Shown here: piece after piece, positions 5,000 through 53,749 of the stretch | Numbering within the stretch: position 1 is the stretch's first letter | How the letters are laid out: every line of letters starts with the position of its first letter | Assembly (NCBI RefSeq): GCF_034087045.1 | Contig: NZ_CP139247.1 | Coordinates: 3,436,001 to 3,500,000 of the forward strand | Reading direction: 5' to 3' | From: Chitinophaga sancti | GTDB lineage: Bacteria > Bacteroidota > Bacteroidia > Chitinophagales > Chitinophagaceae | Length of the DNA stretch: 64,000 nucleotides | The notes under the pieces: model-generated | What the model was told of the DNA's origin: nothing | Databases searched by the model: none | Seen by the model: only the letters and a program-made list of their open reading frames with translations | Position numbers and translations under genes: made by a program

Positions 5000-5042
5000 A
5001 TACAATATAACATAACTATATTTCTATAAGGACATTATAAGG

Positions 5043-5095: not shown

Positions 5096-5182
5096 TATTT
5101 TAGTATTGGTATAGTGATAAAGATTCACTATATTAGCATACCTATATTTATTATTGATTTTATAACCTCAAAACTGTTTGTT

Positions 5183-31454: not shown

Positions 31455-32174
31455 TTATACAAGAATTTTCTCCATTACATGGGCAGCTACTTCCAGCAGC
31501 TCGGGCTGGGTATTATGCCTTGGATGGGCTACATTTACATACATTTCATGACAAACACTGGTAGGGCGGCTTGTCAAAATGATGATCCGGTCCGCAATCT
31601 GCACTGCCTCATCAATATCGTGGGTCACCATGACGAGTGTCTTGGGTCGCTTATCCAATAATCGGATAAGTTCCTTCCTGATTTCCATGCGGGACAGATA
31701 ATCCAGGGAAGAGAAAGGTTCATCCAAGAAAATGATATCTGAAGTACCTGCCAATACCCTGGCAAGTTCCACCCGCTGCTTCATCCCGCCGGACAACTCA
31801 TGGGGATAATATTTTTCAAAGCCCTTCAGATTGACCAGATTGATCAGGTCCTGTATTTCTGCATCCCGACGTACAATATCTTTCATGTGACGCAGGCCAA
31901 TACCCACGTTTTCAGCCACCGTCAGCCAGGGAAACAGACCGCCCTGTTGGAAGACCGTACGTACGGAACTAGTAACCTTTACCCGACCGCTGGCAGGTTG
32001 CAGATACCCCGTTAACAGGTTGAGCAAAGTCGTTTTTCCACACCCGGAAGGGCCTACAATCACTACCCTTTCCCCACGCCTGACCTCGATAGTGATATTG
32101 TCCAGTACTTTCATGTTGCCGTATGTAAAAGAAACCTTCTCCAGTAAAATATGTGCGTGATCATTGTTTACCAT
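31455..32174 (-). CDS. ABC importer ATP-binding protein (SsuB/NrtD type)
   Basis: This 239-residue ATPase has Walker A GPSGCGKT at 41-48, Q-loop VFQQGGLFPWLTVAENV, signature LSGGMKQR at 127-134, Walker B IIFLDEP near 147-153 and H-loop VTHDIDEA. It energises the adjacent permease. Its start overlaps the permease gene by 14 bases, so the two are translationally coupled. Confidence 0.93.
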   Translation of the reverse strand: MVNNDHAHILLEKVSFTYGNMKVLDNITIEVRRGERVVIVGPSGCGKTTLLNLLTGYLQPASGRVKVTSSVRTVFQQGGLFPWLTVAENVGIGLRHMKDIVRRDAEIQDLINLVNLKGFEKYYPHELSGGMKQRVELARVLAGTSDIIFLDEPFSSLDYLSRMEIRKELIRLLDKRPKTLVMVTHDIDEAVQIADRIIILTSRPTSVCHEMYVNVAHPRHNTQPELLEVAAHVMEKILV

Positions 32175-32919
32175 AACCCCATTTTAAATTATCAGCTTTT
32201 GTAAATCTTTGGAATAATTTGTCGATGCCCATACCGATGGTCCCGATCGTAATCATATAACAGACGGCTGTATCCAGTCGTAAGCCGTTTCTGGCATCCC
32301 ATATCCCATATCCCAATCCATCCTGACAACCGACCATTTCAGCGGCTACAATGACCACCCAGCTGATACCATAGCAAATTCTCATGGAAGTCAGTAATTG
32401 CGGCATAATAGCCGGCAACGTGACCTTAAACAGCAATTCGGTACTGTTAAAGTCATGATCTCTGGCCACGCGGAAATAAATATCAGGGATCGTAGCAACA
32501 GCTGATATTACTGATAAGGTAAGCGGGAAAAAAGTGGCCAGGAATATCAGGAAGATAGCTGGCTTGTCACCGATATGGAACCATAATATTGCAAAGGGGA
32601 TCCATGCCAGTGGAGATAAGGAACGGAAGAAATTGAGTATCGGAAGTATGGCCGTATTCCAGTTTCGGTTCCTTCCCAACCACAACCCGATAGGGATAGC
32701 CAGGCATGCTGACGATAAAAATCCGATGGCGACTCTCCATAAAGAGGCAACAATATCATTCAATAAGCGAGCGGAGGAGAGCTCCTCCTGGAAACTTTTC
32801 ACCACGGACAGGGGAGAGGGGAATGCATATTCAGGGAAGATCTTTAATAAAGAAATCACCTGCCAGCAGACTAAGATAAACAGGATAGCCAGCGGTGCCA
32901 GCCAATTTTTATGTATCAT
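32161..32919 (-). CDS. ABC importer permease (SsuC/NrtB type)
   Basis: Six predicted membrane helices are spread over 252 residues. The cytoplasmic EAA-type loop region reads LAWIPFAILWFHIGDKPAIFLIFLATFFPLTLSV, and GLGYGIWDARNGLRLDTA follows, as usual for the BPD_transp_1 family. It transports small anions, sulfonates or thiamine precursors in relatives. The gene follows the SnoaL-like gene by 82 bases, the largest gap in the run, so an internal promoter is possible. Confidence 0.9.
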   Translation of the reverse strand: MIHKNWLAPLAILFILVCWQVISLLKIFPEYAFPSPLSVVKSFQEELSSARLLNDIVASLWRVAIGFLSSACLAIPIGLWLGRNRNWNTAILPILNFFRSLSPLAWIPFAILWFHIGDKPAIFLIFLATFFPLTLSVISAVATIPDIYFRVARDHDFNSTELLFKVTLPAIMPQLLTSMRICYGISWVVIVAAEMVGCQDGLGYGIWDARNGLRLDTAVCYMITIGTIGMGIDKLFQRFTKADNLKWGYGKQ

Positions 32920-33001: not shown

Positions 33002-33448
33002 TTATTCTTCACCGAAGTTATCGTAATAGGTATAATCTCCTGAAATTTTGCCGTCCTGGAATGTAAAAATTGTACAGATAGGTAATTCAAACGTGGTACT
33101 GTCCGGGGCAGTGCCTTTGGATACAAACTCTACGATGACATGCTGATCACCTGATGGGTACATTTTTACTATCTCATCCCTGACATCCGGGAATGCCTGC
33201 TGCAAGCCACTGTACTTTTCAATAACCTGGGCGATGGTCTGTTTCACTAATCCATTTCCTAATGAGGGATCCTTGAATTCAGCTGTGGGCGTGTACATTT
33301 CGGCCATCTTCTTCCAGTCGTGGTTGTTAAAATGCTCGAAATACTGTTTTACCAGGGCCTCATTGTCGTTACTCATAGTTGTCGATTTTTGGTTGTTACA
33401 TGAAATGAATATCCACATTAATAAAAACAATCCTGATACTTTCTTCAT
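33002..33448 (-). CDS. SnoaL-like lipoprotein
   Basis: The protein has 148 residues with a lipoprotein signal (MKKVSGLFLLMWIFISC, Cys 17) and an NTF2/SnoaL-like domain (about 29-145). The domain holds NEALVKQYFEHFNNHDWKKMAEMYTPTAEFKDPSLG and ends ICTIFTFQDGKISGDYTYYDNFGEE. In polyketide clusters, SnoaL-like proteins can act as cyclases or hydroxylases, but others are simple binding proteins. A lipid-anchored form is uncommon. It starts 15 bases after the TonB receptor stop. Confidence 0.85.
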   Translation of the reverse strand: MKKVSGLFLLMWIFISCNNQKSTTMSNDNEALVKQYFEHFNNHDWKKMAEMYTPTAEFKDPSLGNGLVKQTIAQVIEKYSGLQQAFPDVRDEIVKMYPSGDQHVIVEFVSKGTAPDSTTFELPICTIFTFQDGKISGDYTYYDNFGEE

Positions 33449-33463: not shown

Positions 33464-35866
33464 TTATTTCATACGTGTTTTTTCGTCATTGCTGATCCAT
33501 GCGGGCTTCTTCACTTTTACTTTGCCTTTGTTGATGAAGTTATATTTTAACGTCAGTATAAGTTGCCGGTTGTCTGCTTTCTCCTGGTAATTGGATTTCC
33601 AGTAGACGCCCTGCAACGTTCCTACATACTTTAAGGTTTTCAGGAAATCGCTCACACTCAGTTTTAGCTCAATCTTATCTTTCAATATAGTCTTTTTGGC
33701 GCCGGCTGAAAATGAACAGATTGTTGAAAACTTAAACTGGCCTTGAACGGATGGTGTTATTAATGTATTACTGAATTCCAGTGATAATCCTTTGGGCAAA
33801 GCAAAAGAGTGTTGGGTGAACAACTGGAGGGTAACACGTGAGTTGTCCGGATAGCCCAGTACTTTCGCTCCGGTTTCAGCAAATTTCTGGTAAGCTAAAT
33901 TTACATCAAAATAGCTTTCCCACCACTTTGTAATATCTAATGGTACCGAAATATTCAAATCTATATTAGTAAGGTCCCCGATATTGGCCGGTTTCAGCTT
34001 CTGTTCTTTGGTATCTACATTTTGAAATTGTGCGGTAGTAAAGTAATTGGTCGTACGGAATACGGTGAGGGCTGCTGTATACATTTGCTTCCACTGTGCA
34101 TTCACGGTGATTTTGTTTGTAAATGCCGGTAATAGCGAAGGATTTCCTTCCAATGCCACGTAAGGATTTACATAGTAAACAAAAGGATTGATATCCACAT
34201 AATTAGGGCGGGCAATTCTTCTAGCATAGGCAGCCCCGACTTCCCAGGTTTTGTTGAGCGGGTAAATTAAAGAAAGACTGGGGAAAAGTCCGGACATATC
34301 CCGCGAAACACGAAACTGATTGACCGTTGAATTCCCATTTACCTTGTCATCCTCATATCTCAAACCAGCCTTTATCTCCAGCTTTTTGATATGTGTGTTA
34401 ACTTCAACATAAGCTGCTATAAGATTTTCCTTATACCTGAAAGCATTTGATTTCAGGCTATCCATTTTAAACTCATTGTTGATATAGTCACTATATTCCA
34501 CATTGTTCTTTGTAGCCACATGACTGTATTTAAGTCCTGCATCTAACTTTGTCCCTTTTTTCAGATTTACTGCATAATCCAGCTGGGTAGCCCATATCAT
34601 GATATTCGTAAAAGAATTGTTACGTACCAGCTCCTGCCAGTTATTTCCTTTTGTATATTCATTGTAGTAATCCCCCAGATTATTTTTGTGACTGGACAGG
34701 TAATCTGAACTAAATGTAATAGTGTTCGCAGAATCTATACTATTGCGATATACCAGATTCACAGCATTCTGCCCGGAACTATAATGCTCGATAGCAGTAG
34801 AGCTGACGTCGGTAATTGTATCATTGGTTTTCAGCCGGATCGCATTGACCTGATCGACTTTTTTGCTGTTATTACTACCACTGTAAAAGAGGCTAATGGA
34901 TTGCCTGGCTGTAGGTTTTATATCTATGCCCGCTGAATAGTTATGTACCTTATCCGGGATGTTCTCAAAAAATACACTTTGCTCCAGTGAGGAGTTCTGG
35001 TAGAATGATAGCTTTTCATGAATGTCACCCAGCGACTCCTTATAATTTACGCTATAGTTGGCATACAATGAATACCATTGCTGTCCTAATGAAAGGTTGA
35101 CACCAGCATTGTGTTTGGGATAATATTTATCATATCCCAAAGATGACCCTGTTCCTACACTCAGGTTTCCTGCCAGACCGGTAGCGATCTTACTTTTTGT
35201 CCTGATATTGATAACTGCCGTACCTTCAGCATCGTACTTTGCGGAAGGATGTGCGATCACCTCTATGCTTTTAACAATATTGACAGGAATTGTCTTCAGG
35301 TACTGCATCAGGTCACCTCTTTTCATATATACAGATCTGTCATTGACGGTTACCAGCACTTTCTCCTGACCATTTAACAAGATGTTTTGTTGATTGTCTA
35401 TAAATATGCCTGGCAAGTTACGAATCAAGGAAATTAAATCTGATTGGGATGAGCTGATAATGCCGTTCTCCACGTTGAATATAAGCCGGTCTTTTTCTTT
35501 TACAAACAGTGGTTTGCGTGCATGATGAGCAACTTCAGATAATTGAGCAGAACTTTTTCCCAATAGCACATTGATGCTTACTCCCGGTGTGACAACCATT
35601 TCTTTTTTTTCAAAAGAGAGATGGGTGATACGGATAAAATAGTCTTTCTCTTTTAAATCCTTAAATGAAAAAGCACCATTTGTATCTGACACCGCCACAG
35701 CAATATAGCTGCTATCTGTCGTTTTCAACAGGGTGATCGTTGCCAGCTCAATGGGACTGCCACTTTCATCCAACACCTTCCCACTCAGGATGGATTGGGC
35801 CCTGACTTGTTGTAAAGTTATTAATAGTAAACAGGTAAATATGATTTTCATAGTGCTAATTTTCAT
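33464..35866 (-). CDS. TonB-dependent outer-membrane receptor
   Basis: The 800-residue protein has a signal peptide (about 1-23, ending VRAQ) and a CarboxypepD-regulatory-like domain (about 25-105, SGKVLDESGSPIELATITLLKT). A plug domain follows (about 125-230, LIRNLPGIFIDNQQNILLNG) and then an outer-membrane beta-barrel of the OMP_b-brl_3 type to the end. It imports or exports a ligand across the outer membrane with TonB-ExbBD energy. Its ATG overlaps the stop of the thioesterase gene in an ATGA, so it is translated together with the biosynthetic genes. It is not paired with a SusD. Confidence 0.92.
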   Translation of the reverse strand: MKISTMKIIFTCLLLITLQQVRAQSILSGKVLDESGSPIELATITLLKTTDSSYIAVAVSDTNGAFSFKDLKEKDYFIRITHLSFEKKEMVVTPGVSINVLLGKSSAQLSEVAHHARKPLFVKEKDRLIFNVENGIISSSQSDLISLIRNLPGIFIDNQQNILLNGQEKVLVTVNDRSVYMKRGDLMQYLKTIPVNIVKSIEVIAHPSAKYDAEGTAVINIRTKSKIATGLAGNLSVGTGSSLGYDKYYPKHNAGVNLSLGQQWYSLYANYSVNYKESLGDIHEKLSFYQNSSLEQSVFFENIPDKVHNYSAGIDIKPTARQSISLFYSGSNNSKKVDQVNAIRLKTNDTITDVSSTAIEHYSSGQNAVNLVYRNSIDSANTITFSSDYLSSHKNNLGDYYNEYTKGNNWQELVRNNSFTNIMIWATQLDYAVNLKKGTKLDAGLKYSHVATKNNVEYSDYINNEFKMDSLKSNAFRYKENLIAAYVEVNTHIKKLEIKAGLRYEDDKVNGNSTVNQFRVSRDMSGLFPSLSLIYPLNKTWEVGAAYARRIARPNYVDINPFVYYVNPYVALEGNPSLLPAFTNKITVNAQWKQMYTAALTVFRTTNYFTTAQFQNVDTKEQKLKPANIGDLTNIDLNISVPLDITKWWESYFDVNLAYQKFAETGAKVLGYPDNSRVTLQLFTQHSFALPKGLSLEFSNTLITPSVQGQFKFSTICSFSAGAKKTILKDKIELKLSVSDFLKTLKYVGTLQGVYWKSNYQEKADNRQLILTLKYNFINKGKVKVKKPAWISNDEKTRMK

Positions 35867-36303
35867 TCAGCAAGGGTATAAAATGACAGCTCAGATACAA
35901 TGTATTCGGGTATATGGGCCGGGTATAAGCGTTCTTCTTTTCTGGTAAAGAAACCTATTTCATGTGTACCCTGCGCGACAATGTTTTCTCCTCTGAAATA
36001 TTCAAATTTTAGCTTTAGCTTATTTTGAGATATACTGATGAGATACATTGCGATCAGGACCTTGTCGAACGCATGTAACTCTCCCACATAGTTACAGCTA
36101 CAGCTCAGGGTAACAAGCGCAAGACCGTTCTCCATATCCTGTAGGACCTGTGGTGTTTTTTCCAGCAGAAAATGTTCCCGACAGGTACCCTGCCATTTGA
36201 CATAATTAGAAAAATAAACGTTCCCGACTACATTTGTTTCTTCAAAGGTGACAGTATGGAAGTATTCAAATCTTTTCACTATAGACGTTTTTATGGATAT
36301 CAC
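35863..36303 (-). CDS. Enediyne-type thioesterase (TEBC-like, hotdog fold)
   Basis: This 146-residue hotdog protein has the pattern of enediyne thioesterases of the CalE7/DynE7/SgcE10 kind: residues 13-45 read EYFHTVTFEETNVVGNVYFS and then NYVKWQGTCREHF. These enzymes release and decarboxylate the polyene from the PKSE. They lack the usual acidic hotdog catalytic residue, and this one shows ETN.VGN there. The start codon is GTG, either at 36303 (38-base overlap with the PKS) or at 36279 (14-base overlap). Its stop overlaps the receptor start. Confidence 0.9.
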   Translation of the reverse strand: MISIKTSIVKRFEYFHTVTFEETNVVGNVYFSNYVKWQGTCREHFLLEKTPQVLQDMENGLALVTLSCSCNYVGELHAFDKVLIAMYLISISQNKLKLKFEYFRGENIVAQGTHEIGFFTRKEERLYPAHIPEYIVSELSFYTLAE

Positions 36304-39300
36304 CTAATACTGCTGTGAATACGGCTTTTCCCTCCACCTCCTTTAATTTGAAAGCGATAGACAGGATGGAGGATTGGCCACATTTGTAATAATGTATAGC
36401 AGATGATTCTTCTTTTTCAAACAGGATTGTTTCCAGCAGATTAAGCCCCGCTTTCTTAATGCTCTCCATGATTCCCCAGATGCGGGTTCCGGCTACGGAA
36501 AGCTCTTCTCCGGTATGGGTACTGACAAACCGGGCCAGCTCATAACGTTCTTTCCCCAGCAATGTTTCTTTAAAAGAAGTTACTTTTTCAAGATCACAAC
36601 CTATTTTATAATCAGCTTGTAGCTGCAGGGTCAGGTCTTGCAGGTGGGTCCTGGAAACAAAGCTATTTTTGAGAGAGGGCTTGCCATCATAGCGCCGGAG
36701 AATGTAGTCCTGTCGACGCCAGTCCGTGCTATCCTGCTGACCGCTGATTTCATCCATACGTCGCTGGGCAATGACTTCAATCAGTACCAAAGGAAGTACA
36801 GGATCTTTTTGTGGTGTGAAAGATTGGAAGGTTACCTGGTCCCAATATTCCACGGGCTGCCCCTCTTCATCCAGCAGCAATAGGTCATAAGTGTATAGAT
36901 TGCCTGATTTTGATATTTCTTTTGCTTCGATGCGGTGAACCGTTTTTGTACTGACCGTATATATTCTTTTCACACCTGTTGGCAATAATCTGTAATCAGG
37001 TACACAGGCCTGTATACAATGTAACGCAGCATCTCTTGCTACAGGAGAAGTGGAGAGTATTTCCGGAGAAAGAAACTCGCCAAAGTAGTTGACGTTGGTA
37101 GACGGTTGTAAGGTTACCCCGCATTGATAAGGAGATAAAGCATCATAATGATCAATCACCTGGAAAATGCCCCGGTGGAAAAGCAACTGACCATAGAGGT
37201 CTTCAGCGACATTCAGATCCGGCATATTACTGTCGGTAAGAATAAATGGCTTGATCGCGGCCGGTTTTACAGTGATATATGTTTCAAAATGATCTTTGCC
37301 GTAACCGGTGGCGCTGCTTCTAAGTACAATTTTTATCACATCTGGCGATAAGCGTAAAGCGATCACTCTAATAGTTTGTGTCTCGCCTTCTTCCAATATG
37401 ATCGGGTAACTGAAACTTGTATCAAGGAAGATATAATTGCTCTCTGCAGGGAAAAAAGCAGCAGCTACCTGCCGCATACACTCCAACCCCATGACGGCAG
37501 GAAACACATATCCCCCGTTGAGCATGTGGTCTTTCAGGTACAAATCATTGATAGCAGACAGTTCAAACTCAGTTATTAGTTCAATACCGGGATATAACAG
37601 TCGCACATGTCCCAGAAAACGATATAAGGGCAACGTAAGCGGTGGTGTCTTCAGCGTCTCCATTTTACCGTAACGCCCGGAGATAATGAGGTTATGTCCG
37701 GAAGGGAAATTTTCCATCCACGACATAAATATATCGACGCCTTTTTCCAGGCTGATTGGTTGAATGCCTTGTTGCATCAGGTTTTCCATCACTCCCAGAT
37801 GTTCTCCCATACCAGCACCGCTCCACACAGACCATTCCGCATTCAAAGAGAAACATGCTGGATGAGTAGAAGCATAATTAGCAACTTCTTCTCTCAGCCA
37901 TTCATTGGCCAGTGCATAGTCGGCATTACCATTCATCCCACTTTCTGCTATCACTGATCCAAAAGTGATCAGTAATTTAAGGTCACTGTTTACCAGGTTT
38001 CGGAACCCATCTATCTTCACATTAACAGTGGCATGCAAATCATTAGCAGTTAATTTGAACCATGGAGTAGGTATGTTCCTGCCTGCGCCATGTATAACGC
38101 CTGTGACCGGGCCCAATCTAACACTAGCTGTCTGTATCACTTTGCTGATCGCTTTTTCGTCGCAGATATCCACACTGTGGTATTCATAAGTGATACCCGC
38201 TGCATCAAATCGTTCCAGGCTTTGGCTAAGGCGATCGTCATTGGTTGCACGACCTATCAATAATAACTTTACACCATATTTGGTAGCTAATGATAAAGCA
38301 CATTCCGCTGTAATACCCTTTGCGCCACCGCTGACTAATATGACATCCTTCTCTGTGAGCGGCACCTGGCCACGGGAAGGATAATTAAATACAGGACAGA
38401 ACATGGGTGTATAGCGAACACCTTCTATATACTTTACTTCCGTAAAGCCTTTATTGGCATTTACTTCACTGTTGATAAGAGTTGCGTCTGGTACTACATC
38501 AGTATTGATAACCACACAGCGTAGTCCTTTTTTATCAAGGAAAAGGCTTTTGACAAATCCGGTTACCAATGGGCGATCCTGTACAATAACCAGCAGATCC
38601 TTCTCCTGCAGAGATGTTAAAACGGCTGGCAGCATGTCCAACACATCGCTATGTGAACAACCAATAAGATTTAGGAATATACCATCAGCCGCAGGCTGGG
38701 AGTCCACTTTAAGTGGTGTGTTGATATATGATGTATGAAAGAAATGTACCCATGGCTCAATGCCCGGCAACTGATCTGTTCGCGGTGCATCATTCATTTG
38801 GGATACAGACAATACAGCTACCACTTCCGCAATACTGGCATTGGCATATTCGGTTGGAATGCCTTGCATGACAATTTTCTGGCTGGAAGCAAATCCAGCA
38901 ATCAATTGGCCAACCTGTAAGGAATTCAAATGGAGGTCATCCAGAAAGCGGGCATTGATATCAATCTCTGCTACTGGTAATTCCAGCTTTTGTGCGATCA
39001 ATGCGCTGAAAGATGCCAGTAGTCCGGTATCCTGTTGAGGCGCTTCTACTGGCATATTACCGACAGTGATGGAAGTATCGTCCTCACAGGGATTGGCTAT
39101 GAACCTGGCCTGCCAGTTGATGTCAAATTGCTTAATTGGCCGGTCTTTGATGAAGATATCAAGCTGTATATCTGTACCGGCAGTCCAGATCAGGCCTGCT
39201 GTTTCACACAATCCCTGTGTGGTTTGACCATCCATCGTAATGGCAGCCACAGGTTTCTTCGTAAGATCTCTGGCAATTGGTGTAAGCGTTTTATCTCCTC

Positions 39301-41701
39301 CTACCTCCACCCATAGATCCACCAAATCATCAGCCTGTTGAAAAGCAGGCATAAATAAAACAGGATTGCTCAGCTGTCGTATCAGGTTTTCTTTCATATC
39401 ATCTGAGGAGCTGACAGTAGAGATCATCTTCCGGGAAGGCTTTTGCATGGACAGTTCGCTGACCACTTCACGTAAGCGATCTTCTACCTTTTTCATCCTG
39501 CTGTTGTGAAATGCATAACGGACAGGTAATAACATCGAAGGGACCTTTTGTGACAGCAGGTAGGCTTTACAGGCATTGATATTATCAGCAGTACCTGATA
39601 AGACTGTTTGTGTAGGTGAATTAACAGCTGCAATTTCCACATTCTTCACTGTAATTCGGTCAGCTGGTAGTGGAACTATGAGCATTAAGCCGTCAATACC
39701 TGGGGTATCTTGCATGATCTCACCCCGTTTTTGGGCCAGCTGTATAGCTTGTTCTTCACGCAGATAACCACTCCAGTGCAATGCTGATATTTCGCCCAGG
39801 CTATGTCCTATGCCCACTTCGGCCTGCACACCTAATTGTTCCAGGATGCGTAATCCAATCATCGATGTACCGACAATGCCAGCCTGGATCATATCCAGCT
39901 GCTGACTGTTTTCGTTGCCGGCAGGATAACTTTCAGGTATAGCTATTTGCTTAAAGCGTCCTGCAGTAGCAAATCGTTTACTTCCCTGACCGGGGAATAA
40001 AAACCCGATACGGGATTTAGTGGTGCCTGCATTGTAGTAAAATCCCTTATTTTCTATAAAATCATGCCCCTGCGTTATGAGGTGTATCAATTTGCCGAGT
40101 TTCATCGAGAGTTCTGCCGGCGAAGCAGCTACTACCGCTGCTCTGAATGAAGCAGGTTGTAATTGTTTCATCAGGTGCGTACTCAGGTCACCCAGTTCTG
40201 CAAAAGACAACGCCCCAACATAAGTGTTGACCATATCCAGTTGCGCCAGCAGTAACTCCGGAGTGGTGGCTGCAAACAGGAATAGCTCGGTGTCCGGGGC
40301 AGCAGGAATCGCTACACGAACCGGCATTGTGGGCTGATATTCTTCTATAGTGATATGTGTATTGATACCACCAAACCCCATTGCACTCACACTTGCTCTC
40401 ATCGCTTCCTTCTCCGCATAAGGGATGGCTTTAAATGGAAGGTTCAGGGCTGTGCCATCCAGTAAGTTATTTTTATTCCGGCAACCGGTCACCGGGGGGA
40501 TGATCCGGTTTTTAACGACATTTATGATTTTAATAAACCCGGCAATACCTGCAGCAGCTTTTGTATGTCCTATATTACCTTTTACAGAACCGATATAATG
40601 CGCGGAAGTTGTGTTTCTAATTTTGCCAAGCAGGGTCTGTAATTCAACCTGGTCACCGACTAGCGTACCTGTTCCATGTCCTTCAAAATAAGCGACTTTA
40701 TCCGGCTGATAACCTGCCTTGGCGTAAGCTCTTTCCATGGCCAGCGTCTGACCATTGACAGAAGGGCGTGTCAAACCTCCCTGTCCATCAGAAGAAATTC
40801 CATATCCTTTGATAAGACCGTGGACCTTTAAATTATTGGAAATCGCAAAAGACAGCGTGGAAAGGACCACAAAACCACATCCTTCACCCGGCCAGAAGCC
40901 ATTGGCATCTTTATCATAGATCAGCATCTCCTTCGAGGCAAGAGCACCAGCTCTTGAAAAGCCTACCAGCTCAAAAGGATCCAGGCTCAGGTCTACGCCT
41001 CCGGCAATACAGACTTCATTATCTCCTGCGGCAATATGCCGGCAGGCATCTATCACCGCCAGCAAAGAAGAGCTGCAGGCTCCATCGACTGTATAACCAC
41101 CACCATGAAAATCGTAGTAATTACATATTCTCCCCGCGATGGTATTGGATAAACCGCCCGCCAACGAATCTTCGAACATTCTGGGGAAAGCAGACTTATA
41201 ATCTGCCTCCATATCCTGCATAAAGGTCGCCAGCATATCCGGGTTCAGATCCAGTTTATGCAGGTTGGCCATGAGCTTTCGTTGTACATAAGGCCAGCGT
41301 AAACGCATTGTATTCGCTCTGGAAAATTCCCCTGTCAGCGTATTCCCTACATACACGCCTACCTGGTCTTTCGGGAGCTGGTTATTTTGCAATAAACCCG
41401 CATCCTCCATAGCTTCAGAGGCTACATCCAGGGCCAACCAATGGGTAAGGTCTGTGCCCCGGAACACTTCTCCTGATATATTATATTTCTTCCTGTCAAA
41501 GGCATAATTACTCAATACGGCTGCCATAACAGTACGTATTTTATCATCATCCTTATCTGAAAAATACGCGGCGTTCAATCTCACATCCGGAATTTTCCGG
41601 AAGGCTCTTCGTTGCGCCAGGATATTTCCCCAAAACTCCTGGTAGCTATTTGCATCAGGATATTTACAGGCCATTCCGATAATCGCTATTTCATTTTTCA
41701 T
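36266..41701 (-). CDS. Enediyne-type iterative polyketide synthase (PKSE)
   Basis: The 1811-residue synthase carries the PKSE domain order. KS (about 3-455): C209 in DGACSSS, H342 in GHGTGT, H379 in KGNIGHT. AT (about 562-820): FPGQGS, S634 in GHSLGE, H732. ACP: S927 in DLHLNSL. KR (about 1115-1300): SGGAKG at 1124, S1249, Y1262. Double-hotdog DH (about 1370-1620): H1392 in DHMLNGG, D1557 and H1561. Integrated phosphopantetheinyl transferase (about 1690-1800): D1703 and E1705 in GCDLE, then WGIMESIKK. All catalytic residues look intact, so it should charge its own ACP and build a polyene iteratively. DLTHWLALDV and NTLTGEFSRAN near residues 84-130 are PKSE hallmarks. It overlaps UNBU by 11 bases. 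Confidence 0.95.
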   Translation of the reverse strand: MKNEIAIIGMACKYPDANSYQEFWGNILAQRRAFRKIPDVRLNAAYFSDKDDDKIRTVMAAVLSNYAFDRKKYNISGEVFRGTDLTHWLALDVASEAMEDAGLLQNNQLPKDQVGVYVGNTLTGEFSRANTMRLRWPYVQRKLMANLHKLDLNPDMLATFMQDMEADYKSAFPRMFEDSLAGGLSNTIAGRICNYYDFHGGGYTVDGACSSSLLAVIDACRHIAAGDNEVCIAGGVDLSLDPFELVGFSRAGALASKEMLIYDKDANGFWPGEGCGFVVLSTLSFAISNNLKVHGLIKGYGISSDGQGGLTRPSVNGQTLAMERAYAKAGYQPDKVAYFEGHGTGTLVGDQVELQTLLGKIRNTTSAHYIGSVKGNIGHTKAAAGIAGFIKIINVVKNRIIPPVTGCRNKNNLLDGTALNLPFKAIPYAEKEAMRASVSAMGFGGINTHITIEEYQPTMPVRVAIPAAPDTELFLFAATTPELLLAQLDMVNTYVGALSFAELGDLSTHLMKQLQPASFRAAVVAASPAELSMKLGKLIHLITQGHDFIENKGFYYNAGTTKSRIGFLFPGQGSKRFATAGRFKQIAIPESYPAGNENSQQLDMIQAGIVGTSMIGLRILEQLGVQAEVGIGHSLGEISALHWSGYLREEQAIQLAQKRGEIMQDTPGIDGLMLIVPLPADRITVKNVEIAAVNSPTQTVLSGTADNINACKAYLLSQKVPSMLLPVRYAFHNSRMKKVEDRLREVVSELSMQKPSRKMISTVSSSDDMKENLIRQLSNPVLFMPAFQQADDLVDLWVEVGGDKTLTPIARDLTKKPVAAITMDGQTTQGLCETAGLIWTAGTDIQLDIFIKDRPIKQFDINWQARFIANPCEDDTSITVGNMPVEAPQQDTGLLASFSALIAQKLELPVAEIDINARFLDDLHLNSLQVGQLIAGFASSQKIVMQGIPTEYANASIAEVVAVLSVSQMNDAPRTDQLPGIEPWVHFFHTSYINTPLKVDSQPAADGIFLNLIGCSHSDVLDMLPAVLTSLQEKDLLVIVQDRPLVTGFVKSLFLDKKGLRCVVINTDVVPDATLINSEVNANKGFTEVKYIEGVRYTPMFCPVFNYPSRGQVPLTEKDVILVSGGAKGITAECALSLATKYGVKLLLIGRATNDDRLSQSLERFDAAGITYEYHSVDICDEKAISKVIQTASVRLGPVTGVIHGAGRNIPTPWFKLTANDLHATVNVKIDGFRNLVNSDLKLLITFGSVIAESGMNGNADYALANEWLREEVANYASTHPACFSLNAEWSVWSGAGMGEHLGVMENLMQQGIQPISLEKGVDIFMSWMENFPSGHNLIISGRYGKMETLKTPPLTLPLYRFLGHVRLLYPGIELITEFELSAINDLYLKDHMLNGGYVFPAVMGLECMRQVAAAFFPAESNYIFLDTSFSYPIILEEGETQTIRVIALRLSPDVIKIVLRSSATGYGKDHFETYITVKPAAIKPFILTDSNMPDLNVAEDLYGQLLFHRGIFQVIDHYDALSPYQCGVTLQPSTNVNYFGEFLSPEILSTSPVARDAALHCIQACVPDYRLLPTGVKRIYTVSTKTVHRIEAKEISKSGNLYTYDLLLLDEEGQPVEYWDQVTFQSFTPQKDPVLPLVLIEVIAQRRMDEISGQQDSTDWRRQDYILRRYDGKPSLKNSFVSRTHLQDLTLQLQADYKIGCDLEKVTSFKETLLGKERYELARFVSTHTGEELSVAGTRIWGIMESIKKAGLNLLETILFEKEESSAIHYYKCGQSSILSIAFKLKEVEGKAVFTAVLGDIHKNVYSEKI

Positions 41702-42608
41702 ATGTTAACCCGCTTGAAGAAATATTTAACCGGGGCGATAATGCGTATTTAGCAGCGCCTACCTTTGGAATACTGAGCAGTATGCCTCTCAGGATACATA
41801 CAATAAACAACGCAAAGAACAACCCGAATACCACATGGAAAATCATCAGCAAACCATACACCATGGCTACAGAAAATGCATACAGCATTTGTTCGATAAT
41901 ACCGGAAGGGGTAGTGGCAGGATCAGAGATCATATAAAATGTGAATAACAGAAACGCCACACCTGTACACGGTAGTAAAGCAGCTGTCAGTGATACATCA
42001 AAGAAGATGCTTCTTAGCACGGCCTGTGCCACAAAGCCTGTGAGCCAGGCAAGGATCAGTGGTATTCTGCCGGTGAATTTGAAATTCAGGAATGTTCCAG
42101 CTGTCACCAGAATAGCAGGAATGATCCAATCTCCCCAGCCAGTCACATTTTCCGTGAACATATATGGGGGTGAAATGCCGACCCATGAAAACATGATCAA
42201 TGTCAGTGCAATGCCTGTATTGGAAGGATTAAGGAAATGTCTTGATTTGCCATTGATGATGATCCTGAAAATCACTTTTGAACTAATAGCTGCTGCAGAT
42301 GCAAATACTATCGGTGATAAATCGCTGTTGGCAAATAACAACATAGAAGTGGCCATCCCTGTAATATGTGCTGGCAACAGGAAGTTGACAAGATTTTTCC
42401 AGCTACCGCTAAAACGGGGGGGCTTATGATTAGCGGTTGCAAAAAGGTATTCATACAACAATTCCAGTGAATAGGTGGTCGCTAATGCTGCCAGCGGATA
42501 TGCCCATGATTGTTCAAAACCAAGGAAGAAATGTCCGGCAATGTTGAGTACAGTGATAGCTAGTGCAAATCTTCTTAACGCGGGAAGCGGGTTATACACT
42601 TTTTCCAT
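41691..42608 (-). CDS. UNBU-like enediyne-cassette membrane protein (RnfD/NQR2-like)
   Basis: This 305-residue protein has about nine hydrophobic segments and resembles the NqrB/RnfD flavin-binding membrane subunit. It keeps the conserved HFLNPSNTGIALTLIMFSWVG, YMISDPATTPSG and AYPLAALATTYSLELLYEYL patterns. UNBU is one of five genes always found with the enediyne PKS; its exact role is unknown, possibly electron transfer or export. It starts 5 bases after UNBV and overlaps the PKS start, which supports translational coupling. Confidence 0.9.
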   Translation of the reverse strand: MEKVYNPLPALRRFALAITVLNIAGHFFLGFEQSWAYPLAALATTYSLELLYEYLFATANHKPPRFSGSWKNLVNFLLPAHITGMATSMLLFANSDLSPIVFASAAAISSKVIFRIIINGKSRHFLNPSNTGIALTLIMFSWVGISPPYMFTENVTGWGDWIIPAILVTAGTFLNFKFTGRIPLILAWLTGFVAQAVLRSIFFDVSLTAALLPCTGVAFLLFTFYMISDPATTPSGIIEQMLYAFSVAMVYGLLMIFHVVFGLFFALFIVCILRGILLSIPKVGAAKYALSPRLNISSSGLTYEK

Positions 42609-42613
42609 GTAGA

Positions 42614-44455
42614 TTAGTTTGATAGGGTGATCGTATTCCAGCCTTCTTTAGCGGCAAATACCTGCTGTTGGCTTTTTCCACTATTGTCCAGGTATTTTAT
42701 TTCGAGATGCATATGCTTTGTGGTGGCATTCTTCAGGCCAAAGAAGATATCAGTTGTGTTTCTGCCTGAATGACCATTGCCACCATCGACAAAGCTGGTT
42801 TGCTTTAACTGGGTGCCTTCATATAAGCGGACAATGGCGCCAATAGCGGGTCTTAAACAGGAATCATTTACCGGTAGCAAAACCCTTAAGCCGATAAAGC
42901 CATTCTTACCTTTGTAGTTGTTCTGGTAGTAATAGGAAGTCTCCCATTGGTTGGCGACTACAAAGTCCAGGTCTCCATCATAATCCAGGTCACCCACTGA
43001 GATGCCACGGGAAATCTGTGTATCATCCATACCCAGTTCAGCAGCGAGATCATAGAATTGACCGGATACGGACCTGACAAAAAAAGGATGGTGATAATGC
43101 CCGGACAGGTCATCTCCCAGTATGAAATTGGGCCATGAAGCCGGGTAGGCCAGCAGATCGTCATTACCTAAAGCCAGCTCCTGCAGCTCCGGCCAGCGAT
43201 CGGCAGTACCTTTCATAAAACCGGTTGCCTGAATGGCTTCGTTGACACCATCATTGTTGAAATCTCCCAATTTCGAATCCCATCCCCAGGAACTTCTTGA
43301 TAAACCCAGTTCTTCACTTTGGTTGACGAAGGGTGCAATACCTCTGTTGAATTTGTCTATCTCACCAGTGTTGATGAAAGCAAAATGCGATTCTTCCAGT
43401 GCATATTCAGCGGCAATATTGCTGACGTAGATATCCAGTAAGCCATCGCTGTTGATATCGCCTATTCCGGCGCCCATTCCTTTATATGAGTCCTTGCCTA
43501 AAACGCTGGAAGCAGTTGTAGTCAGTTTACGTTCACCGTACAGTAGCTTAAATTTTAACCGGCCGGGAACCGACTGGTTAAGCAGGAATTTATCCGGCCC
43601 AAAGTCATTGGCCAGGTATAGTTCGGGTAGCATGTCACCATTAAGGTCTACAGCAGCAACAGCCAGTGTCCAGTCTTCCGGGTTTTTGATACCATCAGAC
43701 CATGTTTTATCTTCAGTAAAGACAGCGTTTTGCAGTTCAACACCTTTACACAGGAAGAAGTGATTTTTTCCGCCATTTGCTGCTCTCGACATGGAGTGCT
43801 GCATGGTCTGGTCCTGGTCAGGTGCTACATTGTCCAGTACACGGGAGCCATCAGGGAAGTAGTTGGTGATGAGGATATCCACTTTGCCATCGCCGTCAAA
43901 ATCAGCGAGTGTAGCTGCATTGGAGAACCATCTTTCACCGCTTGTCACCAGTTCAGTCTCTTTGAAGCCAATGCTGTCGGCGTAGAAAATAACAGGCGTT
44001 CTGCCCCAGTAATAGACGAGTATATCGGTTTTGCCATCAGCATTGAAATCATAAGTGAGGGAGCCCATTGGGGCCATAGTAGCTGAGTCATAAGGCAGGA
44101 GCTTTACATCCAGTCTTACAGGTGGCTCCCTTTTTTTGATAGAAGAGATGAGCACTGCATCAAACCGGGGGTCTACGTGTATGATATCATCACTGCGGCC
44201 ATCATTGTCAAGATCGGCAATCGTCACCGCAGCACCTACGGAAGAGATCCATGCGGCTATATTTTTATATTGCGGGTGTACATTCCGGATTAATTTCGGT
44301 GTTCCTTCTGTCACAGGCAGGTCCATTCTCGAAAAGGAGAAATCAGTGGCCAGCGTTGCTCTTTCTGCTGGTGTAAGCTGCGCTTTTCTGGCAAAAATGA
44401 AACATACACATACGACGATGACGGCCAGTGCTTTGATCAGGTAATTGTTAATCAT
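42614..44455 (-). CDS. UNBV-like protein (FG-GAP repeats with ASPIC/UnbV domain)
   Basis: The 613-residue protein has an N-terminal membrane/signal helix (about 6-22). Repeated Asp-rich FG-GAP/VCBS calcium-binding loops follow: DLDNDGRSD, DFNADGKTD, DFDGDGKVD, DINSDGLLD, DFNNDGVNE, DLDYDGDLD. The C-terminal ASPIC/UnbV domain (about 510-613) includes FVDGGNGHSGRNTTDIFFGL. It is exported and probably forms a beta-propeller. UNBV is part of the conserved enediyne warhead cassette but has no known reaction. One base separates it from the UNBL stop. Confidence 0.9.
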   Translation of the reverse strand: MINNYLIKALAVIVVCVCFIFARKAQLTPAERATLATDFSFSRMDLPVTEGTPKLIRNVHPQYKNIAAWISSVGAAVTIADLDNDGRSDDIIHVDPRFDAVLISSIKKREPPVRLDVKLLPYDSATMAPMGSLTYDFNADGKTDILVYYWGRTPVIFYADSIGFKETELVTSGERWFSNAATLADFDGDGKVDILITNYFPDGSRVLDNVAPDQDQTMQHSMSRAANGGKNHFFLCKGVELQNAVFTEDKTWSDGIKNPEDWTLAVAAVDLNGDMLPELYLANDFGPDKFLLNQSVPGRLKFKLLYGERKLTTTASSVLGKDSYKGMGAGIGDINSDGLLDIYVSNIAAEYALEESHFAFINTGEIDKFNRGIAPFVNQSEELGLSRSSWGWDSKLGDFNNDGVNEAIQATGFMKGTADRWPELQELALGNDDLLAYPASWPNFILGDDLSGHYHHPFFVRSVSGQFYDLAAELGMDDTQISRGISVGDLDYDGDLDFVVANQWETSYYYQNNYKGKNGFIGLRVLLPVNDSCLRPAIGAIVRLYEGTQLKQTSFVDGGNGHSGRNTTDIFFGLKNATTKHMHLEIKYLDNSGKSQQQVFAAKEGWNTITLSN

Positions 44456-44456
44456 A

Positions 44457-45392
44457 TTAAGCGATTAGGGTCTTTGAGTATAATTCTTCAGCGATCATTT
44501 TTCTCCAGGAGTAGTATTGCGTAAAAGCATCCTGTTGCGCATCCACTTTCAGAAGTGCCCGGTCGGTTATTTCGGCTACAGAGGACAGGCTATAACCAGT
44601 GATAGCGGCAATGGCGTTATTAGTATCTGCGGTGACCGTTTCAGCCCTTTCCCTGGCTTTGGCTGCAAATGCTACACCCTGTAAAAGGAAGGGCAGATGG
44701 GGGCCCGTATGGCCTTTTAAGCGCTGTAATTCGGTTGGTTGAGCACCGCCGGCATATACAGCAGCCAGTCCAACACCAGCCCACAGATCGGCATGATAAT
44801 GGGTAGGGAATGCATAGAGCGTTTTTGCCACGTTATCCACCTCTGTACCGCAGATGAACCAAAGAGCACGCCCTACACCCTGATAAAAAACATGTGTGGC
44901 AGCCTGGGAGAGTTTAGGCAATATTTGCTGCCGGATTATTTTTTCAGTTTTAAAATAGGCTTCGTGGAATCCATATCCATCGATGATCAGCCATCTTAAT
45001 AGGGGATCATAACGGGATAATATGTTTTCTACATGAAAAGGCAGTCTGGCATAAGCCCATCCTATACCAACATGCAGCATATATATATGATGGTTGCCTT
45101 TACCACTGAGAAAATCAGGAATGCACTTGTTCTGTTTGGCCTTAAAAGCATCTTTCACAGCCATGCCCATAGCAGCACCTTCATAGGAAAAACCTCTGAA
45201 CAGGTTTGTCTTCTGGTCCAGCGATCGGCATAACACGGCCTGGTCATCAATATCCAGGCAATGATGGTAACCATCCAGGAAAGCAATACCTATATTTTCC
45301 AGTAAGCTGGCAGCATGGGCATCCTTTACAAAAAATCCTCTCTTTTGCAGGGAGGCTTCTTCGTAGGATACCTTGAACAGGTTGTAGATCAT
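44457..45392 (-). CDS. UNBL-like protein (DUF1702)
   Basis: This 311-residue cytosolic protein matches DUF1702/UNBL over its length. Its N-terminus has KRGFFVKDAHAASLLENIGIAFLDGYH, followed by FRGFSYEGAAMGMAV, MLHVGIGWAYARL, DPLLRWLIIDGYGFHEAYFK and VGRALWFICG. The family is restricted largely to enediyne-type and a few other secondary-metabolite clusters, and its chemistry is unresolved. Its start overlaps the DUF1028 gene stop by four bases. Confidence 0.9.
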   Translation of the reverse strand: MIYNLFKVSYEEASLQKRGFFVKDAHAASLLENIGIAFLDGYHHCLDIDDQAVLCRSLDQKTNLFRGFSYEGAAMGMAVKDAFKAKQNKCIPDFLSGKGNHHIYMLHVGIGWAYARLPFHVENILSRYDPLLRWLIIDGYGFHEAYFKTEKIIRQQILPKLSQAATHVFYQGVGRALWFICGTEVDNVAKTLYAFPTHYHADLWAGVGLAAVYAGGAQPTELQRLKGHTGPHLPFLLQGVAFAAKARERAETVTADTNNAIAAITGYSLSSVAEITDRALLKVDAQQDAFTQYYSWRKMIAEELYSKTLIA

Positions 45393-46387
45393 AATTTTTC
45401 AATTCTTTTTAACAGCTCATATGGTACATTCAGTACGCCTGCGTTTACAATACGGGGCAGCATTTTAATTTTCCAGACGGGGTCCTGGCGGAACACTGTT
45501 TTGAACACATCGAGGGCACGATCATCCATTCCTTTATTAGCAAGTTCTACTGCATACCAGAACTTCATCTCGCTATTACCGGGATTTAATTTTTCAGCCT
45601 TATTGAAGGCTTCATCAGCAGCGTCGGGATCGTTTTTTTCCAGGTAGTAGTATCCCAAATTCACAGCATCGTAGGCTGTTTTAATGGTATAGATCCTTTT
45701 CAGTTCTTTGATAGGATCGGGGTTATCTTCCACCCTGATATCAACTTTACGGTCTAACCATATTTTTCCGGTAGGCTTCTTTCTTACAACGAGCAGGCAT
45801 GCTGATTGCTTTCCCCGGATATCACCACCGGCGTCTTGAGCGGCCTCCAAAGCAGCGATCATTCTAGCGGCCAGCGGGCCATCCGTTTGTTCATAAGCAG
45901 CAGCCATCATTTTCCACACGTCTTTACTTTCAGCGGTATTTGCCTGAACGGAGTAAAACCTACCCTGCTGATGACCGGCTTCCGCTACGCACATTTTACC
46001 AGTATTGACAGCGATATTGCCATTGGTATCGAGAATAGCCAACTGTCTTATATCTCTGGCAGGATCTGCCTGCAACAGTTTGTGCAATACACTGTCTGGC
46101 GATATACCCTTTTTCAGCAAGGCCAGGCCATTAGGTCCAAAGCCAATATTCACCACAGCCTGCGTAGCGATAATACCGGCCCCGGCTTCTCCCCATGCTA
46201 CTGTAGTACCTACAGAGAACCAGTGGGACTGAACGGCTATACCCATATCTCCTGTTTCCGGATCAAATGCTACAATCGAGAATGTATGCGCAAAAGGTTC
46301 TTCATTAATGTATTGTCCATGCATCCATTGAGGATGTATGAGCAGGTACATACAGATGAACAACACATGGAATCTGAATTTCACCAT
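45389..46387 (-). CDS. Secreted DUF1028 protein with C-terminal TPR-like repeats
   Basis: The 332-residue protein begins with a signal peptide (about 1-24, ending MHGQ). The DUF1028 domain (about 33-235) is clear: HTFSIVAFDPETGDMGIAVQSHWFSVG, WGEAGAGIIATQAVVNIGFGPNGL and DIRQLAILDTNGNIAVNTG. DUF1028 resembles N-terminal-nucleophile hydrolases. The last 90 residues hold about two TPR-like helix pairs (LGYYYLEKNDPDAADEAFNKAEKLNPGN). Its place directly before UNBL, with an overlapping stop, ties it to the pathway. It may be an amidase-like tailoring or protective enzyme, but that is inference. Confidence 0.82.
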   Translation of the reverse strand: MVKFRFHVLFICMYLLIHPQWMHGQYINEEPFAHTFSIVAFDPETGDMGIAVQSHWFSVGTTVAWGEAGAGIIATQAVVNIGFGPNGLALLKKGISPDSVLHKLLQADPARDIRQLAILDTNGNIAVNTGKMCVAEAGHQQGRFYSVQANTAESKDVWKMMAAAYEQTDGPLAARMIAALEAAQDAGGDIRGKQSACLLVVRKKPTGKIWLDRKVDIRVEDNPDPIKELKRIYTIKTAYDAVNLGYYYLEKNDPDAADEAFNKAEKLNPGNSEMKFWYAVELANKGMDDRALDVFKTVFRQDPVWKIKMLPRIVNAGVLNVPYELLKRIEKL

Positions 46388-46396
46388 AGGAATTAA

Positions 46397-46693
46397 TCAA
46401 GCAAGTAAGGATTTCATTTTAAAGGCCAGTCCCATACTCCCGTCAATGTTGATTTTTCCCTCCATCAATGCCAGTATGGGATTGAGCTTTCCGCTTTTCA
46501 TTTTATAAAAGGTGTTCAGATCCGTTTTAACGACACAGTTAGCCTCAACATCATCCTGGCTAATAATATTTTTATCCCCTGTGCCGTCAATAAGGAAGAT
46601 ATGATCTCCCATTACAAGCTTCATTTTAGCTTGAATGGGATCCATATCTTCTACCTGAACTCTCATCTGGTCGAAGATTTCAGTTAATTCCAT
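46397..46693 (-). CDS. SCP2-type sterol/lipid-carrier domain protein
   Basis: The protein has 98 residues and consists of one SCP2-like domain: KMKLVMGDHIFLIDGTGDKNIIS, CVVKTDLNTFYKMKSGKLNPILALMEGKINIDGSM, ending LAFKMKSLL. SCP2 domains bind hydrophobic molecules in a tunnel, so a polyene or other lipophilic intermediate is a plausible guest here. It is nine bases upstream of the DUF1028 gene and ten bases downstream of the paralogue at 46704. Confidence 0.87.
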   Translation of the reverse strand: MELTEIFDQMRVQVEDMDPIQAKMKLVMGDHIFLIDGTGDKNIISQDDVEANCVVKTDLNTFYKMKSGKLNPILALMEGKINIDGSMGLAFKMKSLLA

Positions 46694-46703: not shown

Positions 46704-47291
46704 TTATGCTGCGCAAAAGATGATTTCGATATTATTATTTTTTGTAACCAGGTTATTACTTTCTATCTGGTACAGGTTAGCGCTTGTGGCAGAGAATGTG
46801 TTCAGTTGTGAGCAGGCCCTGGCAGATGCATCTTTGATGGCTAACTCACCATCGAAATAAATATTATACTCGAAATTCATTTCCATTGTAGAAGGGAAGT
46901 CCTGGTTGAGGTAGTGGGATTTTACGCCGCTTTTAAGGGTATTGGTTACTTCAAAGCGAACTTCTTTACCTAGTAAATTGCTGTATGCGCTACCGTTCCA
47001 GCTATCGAGTGTGATGTCAATATAGCGGAGGCCATCACGTTTTTTTCCGGGATTTTTAGTTGTGAAGTGGAGCGTGCCATCTAACACCAGTACTTCTGTG
47101 TGTCCATTCTTAGTGATGGCAAAAGTTGGATTTGTATTGGTGTAATAGGCGGCAGTCGTAGGGAATGTCTCCTGGGATTCGCCTATGGTAACTTTCATTT
47201 TTTCCTTTTTGGGGAAGGAGAATGCGCCAGGTACTAATGGGGCACCAGCAAGGAAGATGGCCATGTTTTTACCAAAATCTCTTCTTTTCAT
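46704..47291 (-). CDS. Exported beta-rich protein, paralogue of the gene at 47894
   Basis: This 195-residue protein starts MKRRDFGKN with a hydrophobic stretch to about 25, a twin-arginine-like signal. The mature part aligns with the first gene of the operon: TNTNPTFAITKNGHTEVLVLDG against INSNPIFLITRKGEREILVFDA, and DFPSTMEMNFEYNIYFDG against DFPSKLEFNMEYEVMVNG. It ends IIFCAA. It is probably all-beta. No family is recognised. Two such paralogues flanking the flavoprotein gene suggest a structural or binding role, possibly sequestration of the product, but this is a guess. Confidence 0.72.
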   Translation of the reverse strand: MKRRDFGKNMAIFLAGAPLVPGAFSFPKKEKMKVTIGESQETFPTTAAYYTNTNPTFAITKNGHTEVLVLDGTLHFTTKNPGKKRDGLRYIDITLDSWNGSAYSNLLGKEVRFEVTNTLKSGVKSHYLNQDFPSTMEMNFEYNIYFDGELAIKDASARACSQLNTFSATSANLYQIESNNLVTKNNNIEIIFCAA

Positions 47292-47303: not shown

Positions 47304-47855
47304 TTAAGGATTAGACATACTCAATACATGATTGATAACGGAGATAACGTCTTTTAATAGTGGCATGACGCCAAACGTTTCTTTCATTCCTTCAATCTCT
47401 ATCCCCCGACGGGGTTCCATGATGTAGTGTCCATCGTTCTGCAGCACTTTGAGGTTGCGCTGAACGGAGCTGGCATACCACATGCTTTCGTTCATAGAGG
47501 GAACAAAAATTACCGGGGCCTTGGCAGCTACGATGGTAGTAGATATGAGGTCATCACAAATGCCATTGGCAGCTTTTGCTATGATGTTAGCAGTAGCAGG
47601 CATTATCATGATGAGATCAGCTTCCTGTGTAAGTTTGATATGAGGCACGAGGGTATCATCACTTACATCGTAAGTGTTGGTAAATACTTCATTACCTGAA
47701 TGTATTTTTAATGCATATGGAGTGACAAACTTTGTAGCATTATCTGATACCATGATGAAGACGCGTGCATTCAATTCTTTCCTTATCTGCAGGACATAAG
47801 AAGGCATTACAACCGCAGCGACAGCCCCGGTAATGCAGACTAAAATGGTCTTCAA
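47304..47855 (-). CDS. HFCD-type flavoprotein (EpiD/Dfp-like cysteine decarboxylase family)
   Basis: The 183-residue protein has the homo-oligomeric flavin-containing Cys decarboxylase fold. The active-site His is H72 in VPHIKL, the flavin-binding PATANIIAK motif is at 86-94 and the substrate-clamp motif PSMNESMW at 119-126. Known members decarboxylate a C-terminal Cys of a lantibiotic precursor (EpiD) or phosphopantothenoylcysteine (Dfp/CoaC). Here no CoaB synthetase domain is fused, and the gene is cotranscribed with two paralogous proteins whose C-termini are CAC and CAA. That makes a peptide C-terminus a candidate substrate. Alternatively it is a UbiX-like or tailoring enzyme. Confidence 0.85.
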   Translation of the reverse strand: MKTILVCITGAVAAVVMPSYVLQIRKELNARVFIMVSDNATKFVTPYALKIHSGNEVFTNTYDVSDDTLVPHIKLTQEADLIMIMPATANIIAKAANGICDDLISTTIVAAKAPVIFVPSMNESMWYASSVQRNLKVLQNDGHYIMEPRRGIEIEGMKETFGVMPLLKDVISVINHVLSMSNP

Positions 47856-47893: not shown

Positions 47894-48388
47894 TTAACAG
47901 GCACAGGCAACTACATCAACAGTAGTGTCTTCTCCCAGTGTCATGCTTTTCCCGGCTACACGGAACATATCATTGGGCTTTGGCGGGAAGCTGTTGATCT
48001 GACCTTCAGCAGAGCCACTGAGGCCGGATTTGATTACTTCACCATTTACCATTACCTCGTATTCCATGTTGAATTCGAGCTTAGAAGGGAAGTCTTTGTT
48101 TAACTGAAGGGCGGTAACTTTACTATTGTCGCCCAGGTCTGTGATTCTGAATCCGATATCACAACCTAATAATTTACTGGTAGCTTTTGCTTCCCAGTAC
48201 TTAACATCCACGCCCACATGGCGGTTGCCTCCTTCATTTTTTTTAGGGTCAGATGTTTTTACTTCCATTTTAGCATCAAAAACGAGAATTTCACGTTCCC
48301 CTTTACGTGTAATCAGGAAAATTGGATTGGAGTTGATAAGAAAAGTGTTTGCGGAAGGGAACATTACTTCATTTGAAGATGTCGACAT
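47894..48388 (-). CDS. Beta-rich protein ending in Cys-Ala-Cys, paralogue of the gene at 46704
   Basis: With the ATG at 48388 the product has 164 residues and starts MSTSSNEVMF. It has no signal peptide in this form. A longer frame to 48466 adds a hydrophobic MNYLLYNRSYLLSVI stretch that could be a signal, so the start is uncertain. The body is homologous to the gene at 46704 and the last residues read VVACAC, leaving a free C-terminal cysteine. It is the first gene of the long operon. Family unknown. Confidence 0.7.
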   Translation of the reverse strand: MSTSSNEVMFPSANTFLINSNPIFLITRKGEREILVFDAKMEVKTSDPKKNEGGNRHVGVDVKYWEAKATSKLLGCDIGFRITDLGDNSKVTALQLNKDFPSKLEFNMEYEVMVNGEVIKSGLSGSAEGQINSFPPKPNDMFRVAGKSMTLGEDTTVDVVACAC

Positions 48389-49667: not shown

Positions 49668-49679
49668 TATGCAAAGATA

Positions 49680-51568: not shown

Positions 51569-51572
51569 ATGT

Positions 51573-51634
51573 TACTTTAAAGTTCCTACTATACTTTCAG
51601 GTGCCTACTTTCAAATATATACTTTTGTGCCTAG
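51573..51634. promoter_or_regulatory. Divergent control region: repeated TACTTT and GTGCCTA-like motifs
   Basis: TACTTT occurs at 51573, 51592, 51606 and 51620, and G-T-T/G-CCTA at 51582, 51601 and 51627. The copy at 51620-51627 (TACTTTTG) is also a good TAnnTTTG box 30 bases before the SnoaL start. Confidence 0.5.
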
Positions 51635-51656
51635 CTTTGGATAAATTATCTAGAAT

Positions 51657-53717: not shown

Positions 53718-53749
53718 ATGATCAGTTTTTTAACGTTAAATAAAGGCTG

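What the first reader, a model, noticed from the sequence alone, without database searches (positions are those of the whole stretch)
35863..45392. Complete five-gene enediyne warhead cassette in a Bacteroidota genome
Seen: five consecutive, overlapping or abutting minus-strand genes match UNBL (DUF1702), UNBV (FG-GAP plus ASPIC/UnbV), UNBU (RnfD-like), a KS-AT-ACP-KR-DH-PPTase synthase and a CalE7-type thioesterase. Known: these five families together define enediyne warhead clusters, best known from actinomycetes. Inferred: this organism may make an enediyne or a related polyene. The usual accessory genes of actinomycete enediyne clusters are not visible in this window, so the pathway may be novel or minimal.
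Basis: partly seen in the sequence, partly recalled or inferred. Interest (0 to 1): 0.95.

Follow-up and report, generated by a model that had tools for sequence, protein, structure and literature searches.

The report
Enediyne-type cluster with own accessories
This Bacteroidota genome carries all five genes that define the cores of the DNA-cutting enediyne antibiotics of actinomycetes, in one run with ten further genes that recur beside the same five in another genus, and the set likely makes an enediyne-like compound in a group of bacteria from which none has been reported.

The parts
44457..45392 (-). E3 / UNBL (DUF1702), 311 aa
   Evidence: PF08012 322 bits; 41% to the C-1027 homologue; tree; confident all-helical model without a PDB fold match
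42614..44455 (-). E4 / UNBV, FG-GAP plus UnbV_ASPIC, 613 aa
41691..42608 (-). E5 / UNBU, RnfD-like, 305 aa
   Evidence: 48% to the C-1027 homologue; PF03116 below cut-off
36266..41701 (-). PKSE, KS-AT-ACP-KR-DH-PPTase, 1811 aa
35863..36303 (-). E10, CalE7-type thioesterase, 146 aa (GTG start as listed; the true start may lie further in)
47894..48388 (-). u190: first gene of the run, unnamed barrel family, 164 aa from the ATG (the ORF tool starts it at a TTG at 48466), no signal peptide seen
   Evidence: 63% to G036
47304..47855 (-). stand-alone flavoprotein of the CoaC/EpiD/MrsD kind (TTG start), 183 aa
   Evidence: PF02441; CoaBC model 155.9 bits, below its 219.7 cut-off; PDB matches to flavoprotein Cys decarboxylases; 53% to G036
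46704..47291 (-). u195: second member of the barrel family, 195 aa, twin-arginine-like signal at its N-terminus (read by eye)
   Evidence: model and fold match to DynF; 32% to G036
46397..46693 (-). SCP2-like lipid-binding protein, 98 aa
   Evidence: PF02036; 42% to G036
45389..46387 (-). DUF1028 plus TPR protein, 332 aa, overlaps E3 by 4 bases
   Evidence: PF06267 224 bits; 47% to G036
33464..35866 (-). TonB-receptor-like outer-membrane protein, 800 aa, overlaps TE by 4 bases
   Evidence: PF14905 and plug; 30% to G036
33002..33448 (-). SnoaL-like protein, 148 aa
   Evidence: PF12680, PF07366; 42% to G036
32161..32919 (-). ABC importer permease
   Evidence: PF00528; 57% G036, 50% Luteibacter, 53% Pyrinomonadaceae MAG
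31455..32174 (-). ABC importer ATPase
   Evidence: PF00005; 39%, 47%, 49%
30421..31437 (-). ABC importer binding protein, NMT1/SsuA-like; last gene of the run
   Evidence: PF13379; SsuA_fam 135.6 bits, below its 163.5 cut-off; 57%, 51%, 57%; 2 of 60 genomes of the genus, the same two that have DUF1702

Best explanation
The window holds a 15-gene, one-strand cluster, predicted to be one operon, in which a complete enediyne-type core (E3, E4, E5, PKSE, TE) and ten accessory genes likely make and handle an enediyne-type polyyne. Shown: gene content and order, aligned catalytic residues, tree positions, and recurrence of all ten accessory genes beside the cassette in a second genus. Inferred from actinomycete enediynes: the PKSE arms its own ACP through its PPTase domain and builds a linear conjugated polyene, the CalE7-type TE releases it, and E3, E4 and the membrane protein E5 convert it to an acetylenic intermediate (a diiodotetrayne in actinomycetes, which I know from a paper's title and recall only). 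Inferred from fold and neighbours: the two barrel proteins and the SCP2 protein would bind the insoluble chain, as proposed for DynF, u195 perhaps outside the cytoplasm; the receptor and ABC importer would take up a small partner or precursor; the flavoprotein and the SnoaL-like protein would tailor the product. C-1027's E2, E6, P450 and GMC oxidoreductase have no counterpart in the window, so ring closure would need other enzymes, or the product stays linear.
For: Intact five-gene core. KS with 42 other cassette KSs at 100/99, apart from PUFA (99/98) and modular (100/100); E3 tree agrees. One-strand run of 15 genes with gaps of at most 82 bases (coordinates). All ten accessory genes beside the cassette in G036, another genus of the family, at 30-63% identity and in a rearranged order. 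Barrel family in 8 of 68 DUF1702-bearing genomes searched, with the cassette in 7 of the 8, against 1 of 274 Gammaproteobacteria, that one being the cassette-bearing Luteibacter. Importer near E3 in Luteibacter and a Pyrinomonadaceae MAG. Barrel model closest to DynF.
Confidence: 0.6

Rival explanations
1. The cassette makes a linear polyene or polyyne (a pigment, membrane component or signal) and never an enediyne ring; E3-E5 act on it in some other way, and the barrels are ordinary outer-membrane proteins.
For: KS and E3 lie outside the actinomycete clade; no E2 and no C-1027 E6, P450 or GMC oxidoreductase counterpart in the window; outer-membrane barrels are the next fold matches; anaerobes carry such KSs too (PMC10308959, passage).
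Against: The five core genes are kept together with full catalytic motifs, and this exact set is what all characterised enediyne clusters share (PMC5181780, passages). The barrel family also occurs in actinobacteria (Virgisporangium; Trebonia, Streptosporangiaceae and Rugosimonospora MAGs), which lack a Gram-negative outer membrane.
Confidence: 0.27
2. The five genes are the whole pathway and the flanking genes are unrelated neighbours; their recurrence in G036 reflects transfer of one large block.
For: Only the window's genus and G036 show the full set among the loci read; G492's flanks differ, and S. clavuligerus carries a five-gene cassette without these neighbours.
Against: In G036 the ten genes are still with the cassette at 30-63% identity after rearrangement, and barrel and importer accompany it in other phyla. 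Unrelated neighbours would not be kept so.
Confidence: 0.1
3. The cluster is silent or decaying and makes nothing.
For: No expression data; rare in the genus (2 of 60).
Against: All 15 frames are open, motifs are intact, and the cluster is kept at 97-99% protein identity in the sister species.
Confidence: 0.03

Closest known systems
C-1027 (sgc) enediyne cluster, Streptomyces globisporus plasmid SGLP1
   Same: Same five core genes (36-48% identity) and aligned PKSE residues
   Different: C-1027 has a second DUF1702 gene (E2), E6, a P450 and a GMC oxidoreductase, and its TE lies apart from the PKSE gene; none of these accessories is in the window
Five-gene cassette of Streptomyces clavuligerus plasmids
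   Same: Same order E3-E4-E5-PKSE-TE, one DUF1702 gene in that record
   Different: Actinomycete clade; none of the window's accessory genes found beside it
Non-actinomycete enediyne KSs (PMC10308959) and the Herpetosiphon aurantiacus locus (PMC3368417)
   Same: Enediyne-type KSs outside Actinobacteria, Bacteroidetes included, no product known (passages)
   Different: The passages I saw describe no accessory set; I did not compare the Herpetosiphon DNA
DynF of the dynemicin cluster (PDB 6ubl)
   Different: No sequence relation found; two paralogs, one with a signal-like N-terminus; ligand unknown

Membership tests
Enediyne PKS cassette (E3/E4/E5/E/E10) | all five genes clustered | tested here: met
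   E5 by 48% identity to the C-1027 homologue, its Pfam match is below cut-off
Enediyne PKS cassette (E3/E4/E5/E/E10) | PKSE with KS, AT, ACP, KR, DH and PPTase and their active residues | tested here: met
   a DH Asp that I guessed was not conserved and is not counted
Enediyne PKS cassette (E3/E4/E5/E/E10) | KS in the cassette clade | tested here: met
   100/99
Enediyne PKS cassette (E3/E4/E5/E/E10) | CalE7-type thioesterase | tested here: met
Actinomycete enediyne lineage (with C-1027) | KS and E3 inside its clade | tested here: not met
Nine-membered enediyne clusters | E2 gene (PMC5181780) | tested here: not met
   one DUF1702 gene in the whole genome, and it is E3 by its tree place
Ten-membered enediyne clusters | R3 gene (PMC5181780) | not tested
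   no R3 sequence was used
PUFA synthase | KS in the PfaA clade; NCBIfam PfaA cut-off | tested here: not met
   410.9 of 1010.1 bits
DynF family (u190/u195) | fold | tested here: inconclusive
   [not shown]
DynF family (u190/u195) | sequence relation | tested here: not met
   profile A3 has no hit in the PDB sequences at E up to 10
Enediyne producer | a product with an enediyne ring that cuts DNA | not testable with these tools
   needs chemistry

The most novel reading that the evidence does not exclude
A second, non-actinomycete enediyne lineage exists that kept the five-gene core but built its own handling system: a transferable module of DynF-like carrier barrels (one exported), an SCP2 protein, a cysteine-decarboxylase-type flavoprotein and a dedicated ABC importer, so that the reactive polyyne is matured and carried outside the cytoplasm and its chemistry differs from both nine- and ten-membered enediynes.
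Probability: 0.3. Interest if true: 0.88.

Novelty: new variant of a known kind. Interest (0 to 1): 0.66.

Why it matters
Enediynes are among the most potent natural DNA-cutting agents and serve as antibody-drug payloads; by PMC10308959 (passage) they had been reported only from Actinobacteria and ascidian extracts. How the PKSE polyene becomes a core is not fully known. A cassette in a Bacteroidota lineage with a deposited strain as near relative ([Flexibacter] sp. ATCC 35208), few extra genes, and a carrier-like protein that travels with the cassette in several phyla give a compact system for testing what E3-E5 do and whether DynF-type carriers are a wider part of this chemistry.

Tried and rejected

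Print: I found no report of the accessory set in searches (open-access library only; listings and passages seen). Seen as passages: PMC10308959, PMC5181780, PMC9248904 (enediyne occurs 0 times in its main text; it cites a monobactam cluster of ATCC 35208), PMC3368417, PMC9464397, and one reference-list entry in PMC12234687 (the title of Gui 2024, the diiodotetrayne work; its content is recall). Read: parts 1 and 2 of 4 of PMC8725005. The Rudolf 2016 and Gui 2024 papers are not held.

Full report
WHAT IS THERE. Against the C-1027 cluster, identities are 41% (E3), 41% (E4), 48% (E5), 36% (PKSE) and 42% (TE). E5 is only a sub-threshold Pfam match, so its assignment rests on that 48% and on its place. 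Twelve PKSE positions were compared with SgcE, the S. clavuligerus synthase and 13 other cassette synthases; eleven, in the KS, AT, ACP, KR, DH and PPTase domains, are kept in the window and SgcE, and the twelfth was my wrong guess. In one relative, L095, the PPTase positions are missing. The thioesterase's six best solved relatives include CalE7 and DynE7 by name.

WHERE IT BELONGS. In a KS tree of 58 rows, all 43 cassette KSs form one clade (100/99), 7 PUFA KSs another (99/98) and 7 modular KSs a third (100/100). Within the cassette clade the window groups with ATCC 35208, another Chitinophagaceae genus (G036) and a further Bacteroidota genome (G492) at 100/99; the 26 actinomycete KSs, C-1027's among them, form their own clade (100/100). 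G077 of the same family falls outside the window's group. The tool flags the make-up of the window, L012, L096 and L099 rows as unusual. The E3 tree agrees (Bacteroidota group 98/93, G077 again outside; actinomycete E3 and E2 together 99/98). In that sample E2, the published marker of nine-membered enediynes (PMC5181780, passage), is an actinomycete-only branch of the E3 family (100/100). The window's genome has one DUF1702 gene, so the marker is absent. PMC10308959 (passages) reports enediyne KSs from Bacteroidetes and other phyla outside the actinomycete lineage, with no product known, and PMC3368417 (passage) a locus in Herpetosiphon, so a cassette outside actinomycetes is not new.

NOT MINIMAL. 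From 48388 down to 30421, fifteen genes lie on one strand with gaps of at most 82 bases; neighbours overlap at DUF1028/E3, E5/PKSE, PKSE/TE, TE/receptor and permease/ATPase (coordinates). Upstream of E3: u190, a CoaC/EpiD-type flavoprotein, u195, an SCP2 protein, a DUF1028-TPR protein. Downstream of TE: a TonB-receptor-like protein, a SnoaL-like protein and an ABC importer. In G036, a different genus, the order is E3-E4-E5-PKSE-TE, a LuxR-type regulator, then u190 (63%), flavoprotein (53%), u195 (32%), SCP2 (42%), DUF1028 (47%), receptor (30%, opposite strand), permease (57%), ATPase (39%) and binding protein (57%); the SnoaL-like gene (42%) lies upstream of E3 on the other strand. All ten accessory genes are thus still with the cassette after a rearrangement. 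The importer trio also lies near E3 in Luteibacter (47-51%) and in a Pyrinomonadaceae MAG (49-57%). In the genus, DUF1702 and the importer's binding protein are each in 2 of 60 genomes, the same two; these are close relatives (97.3% over 15.4 kb), so this is one event. In the second of them, synteny with the window breaks right after u190: the window's AraC, aldo-keto reductase, HxlR and second SnoaL-like genes (48864-52097) are not there. G492, which groups with the window in both trees, has none of the ten accessory genes in the flanks read.

HOW IT LIKELY WORKS. Shown: genes, residues, trees, recurrence. Inferred from actinomycete work: polyene synthesis by the self-armed PKSE, release by TE, conversion by E3-E5 to an acetylenic, probably iodinated, intermediate. 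Inferred here: barrels and SCP2 carry the chain; the flavoprotein and SnoaL-like protein tailor it; the importer, of the sulfonate/taurine/nitrate class but below NCBIfam cut-offs, brings in a small partner. Untested: operon, ligand, product, toxicity. Ten C-1027 neighbour proteins were tested against the window only, not the whole genome; E6, the P450 and the GMC oxidoreductase have no match, so ring closure, if it happens, needs other enzymes. A linear product is the main rival.

VERDICT. A real enediyne-type cluster of a non-actinomycete lineage with its own recurring accessory set: a new variant of a known kind.

Noticed in passing
L014:90-782, L030:233-1183 and 4506-5291, L066:6312-7142, L068:5634-6416, L077:10296-14951, L084:12986-16114: Exported PEP-CTERM-type proteins, up to five in one locus (L077), flank the cassette in cyanobacteria and Pseudomonadota; twelve such neighbours (one, in L034, without the sorting motif) stay linked by similarity after the last 42 residues are removed. 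They may be another exported partner of the pathway.
   Followed up: partly
L099:421-6453 (G492): The PKSE and the thioesterase appear to be fused in one frame in this Bacteroidota genome.
   Followed up: partly
L095:3807-9317 (G077): A PKSE without the PPTase positions, and no E5 clustered with the others in that locus.
   Followed up: no
L029:10774-13395: In an Acidobacteriota MAG, E3 and TE flank a short 874-aa synthase whose KS is only about 33% identical to the window's.
   Followed up: no
[not shown]
   Followed up: partly
48864-52097: AraC, aldo-keto reductase, HxlR and SnoaL-like genes present here but not at the same place in the sister species G1073: a recent insertion or loss at the upstream edge of the cluster.
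   Followed up: no
53136-54304: Two adjacent phage tail-collar-domain proteins.
   Followed up: no
28308-30101: A 597-aa protein without any Pfam or NCBIfam match, just downstream of the importer; 95% identical in G1073, not found in the other cassette loci.
   Followed up: no
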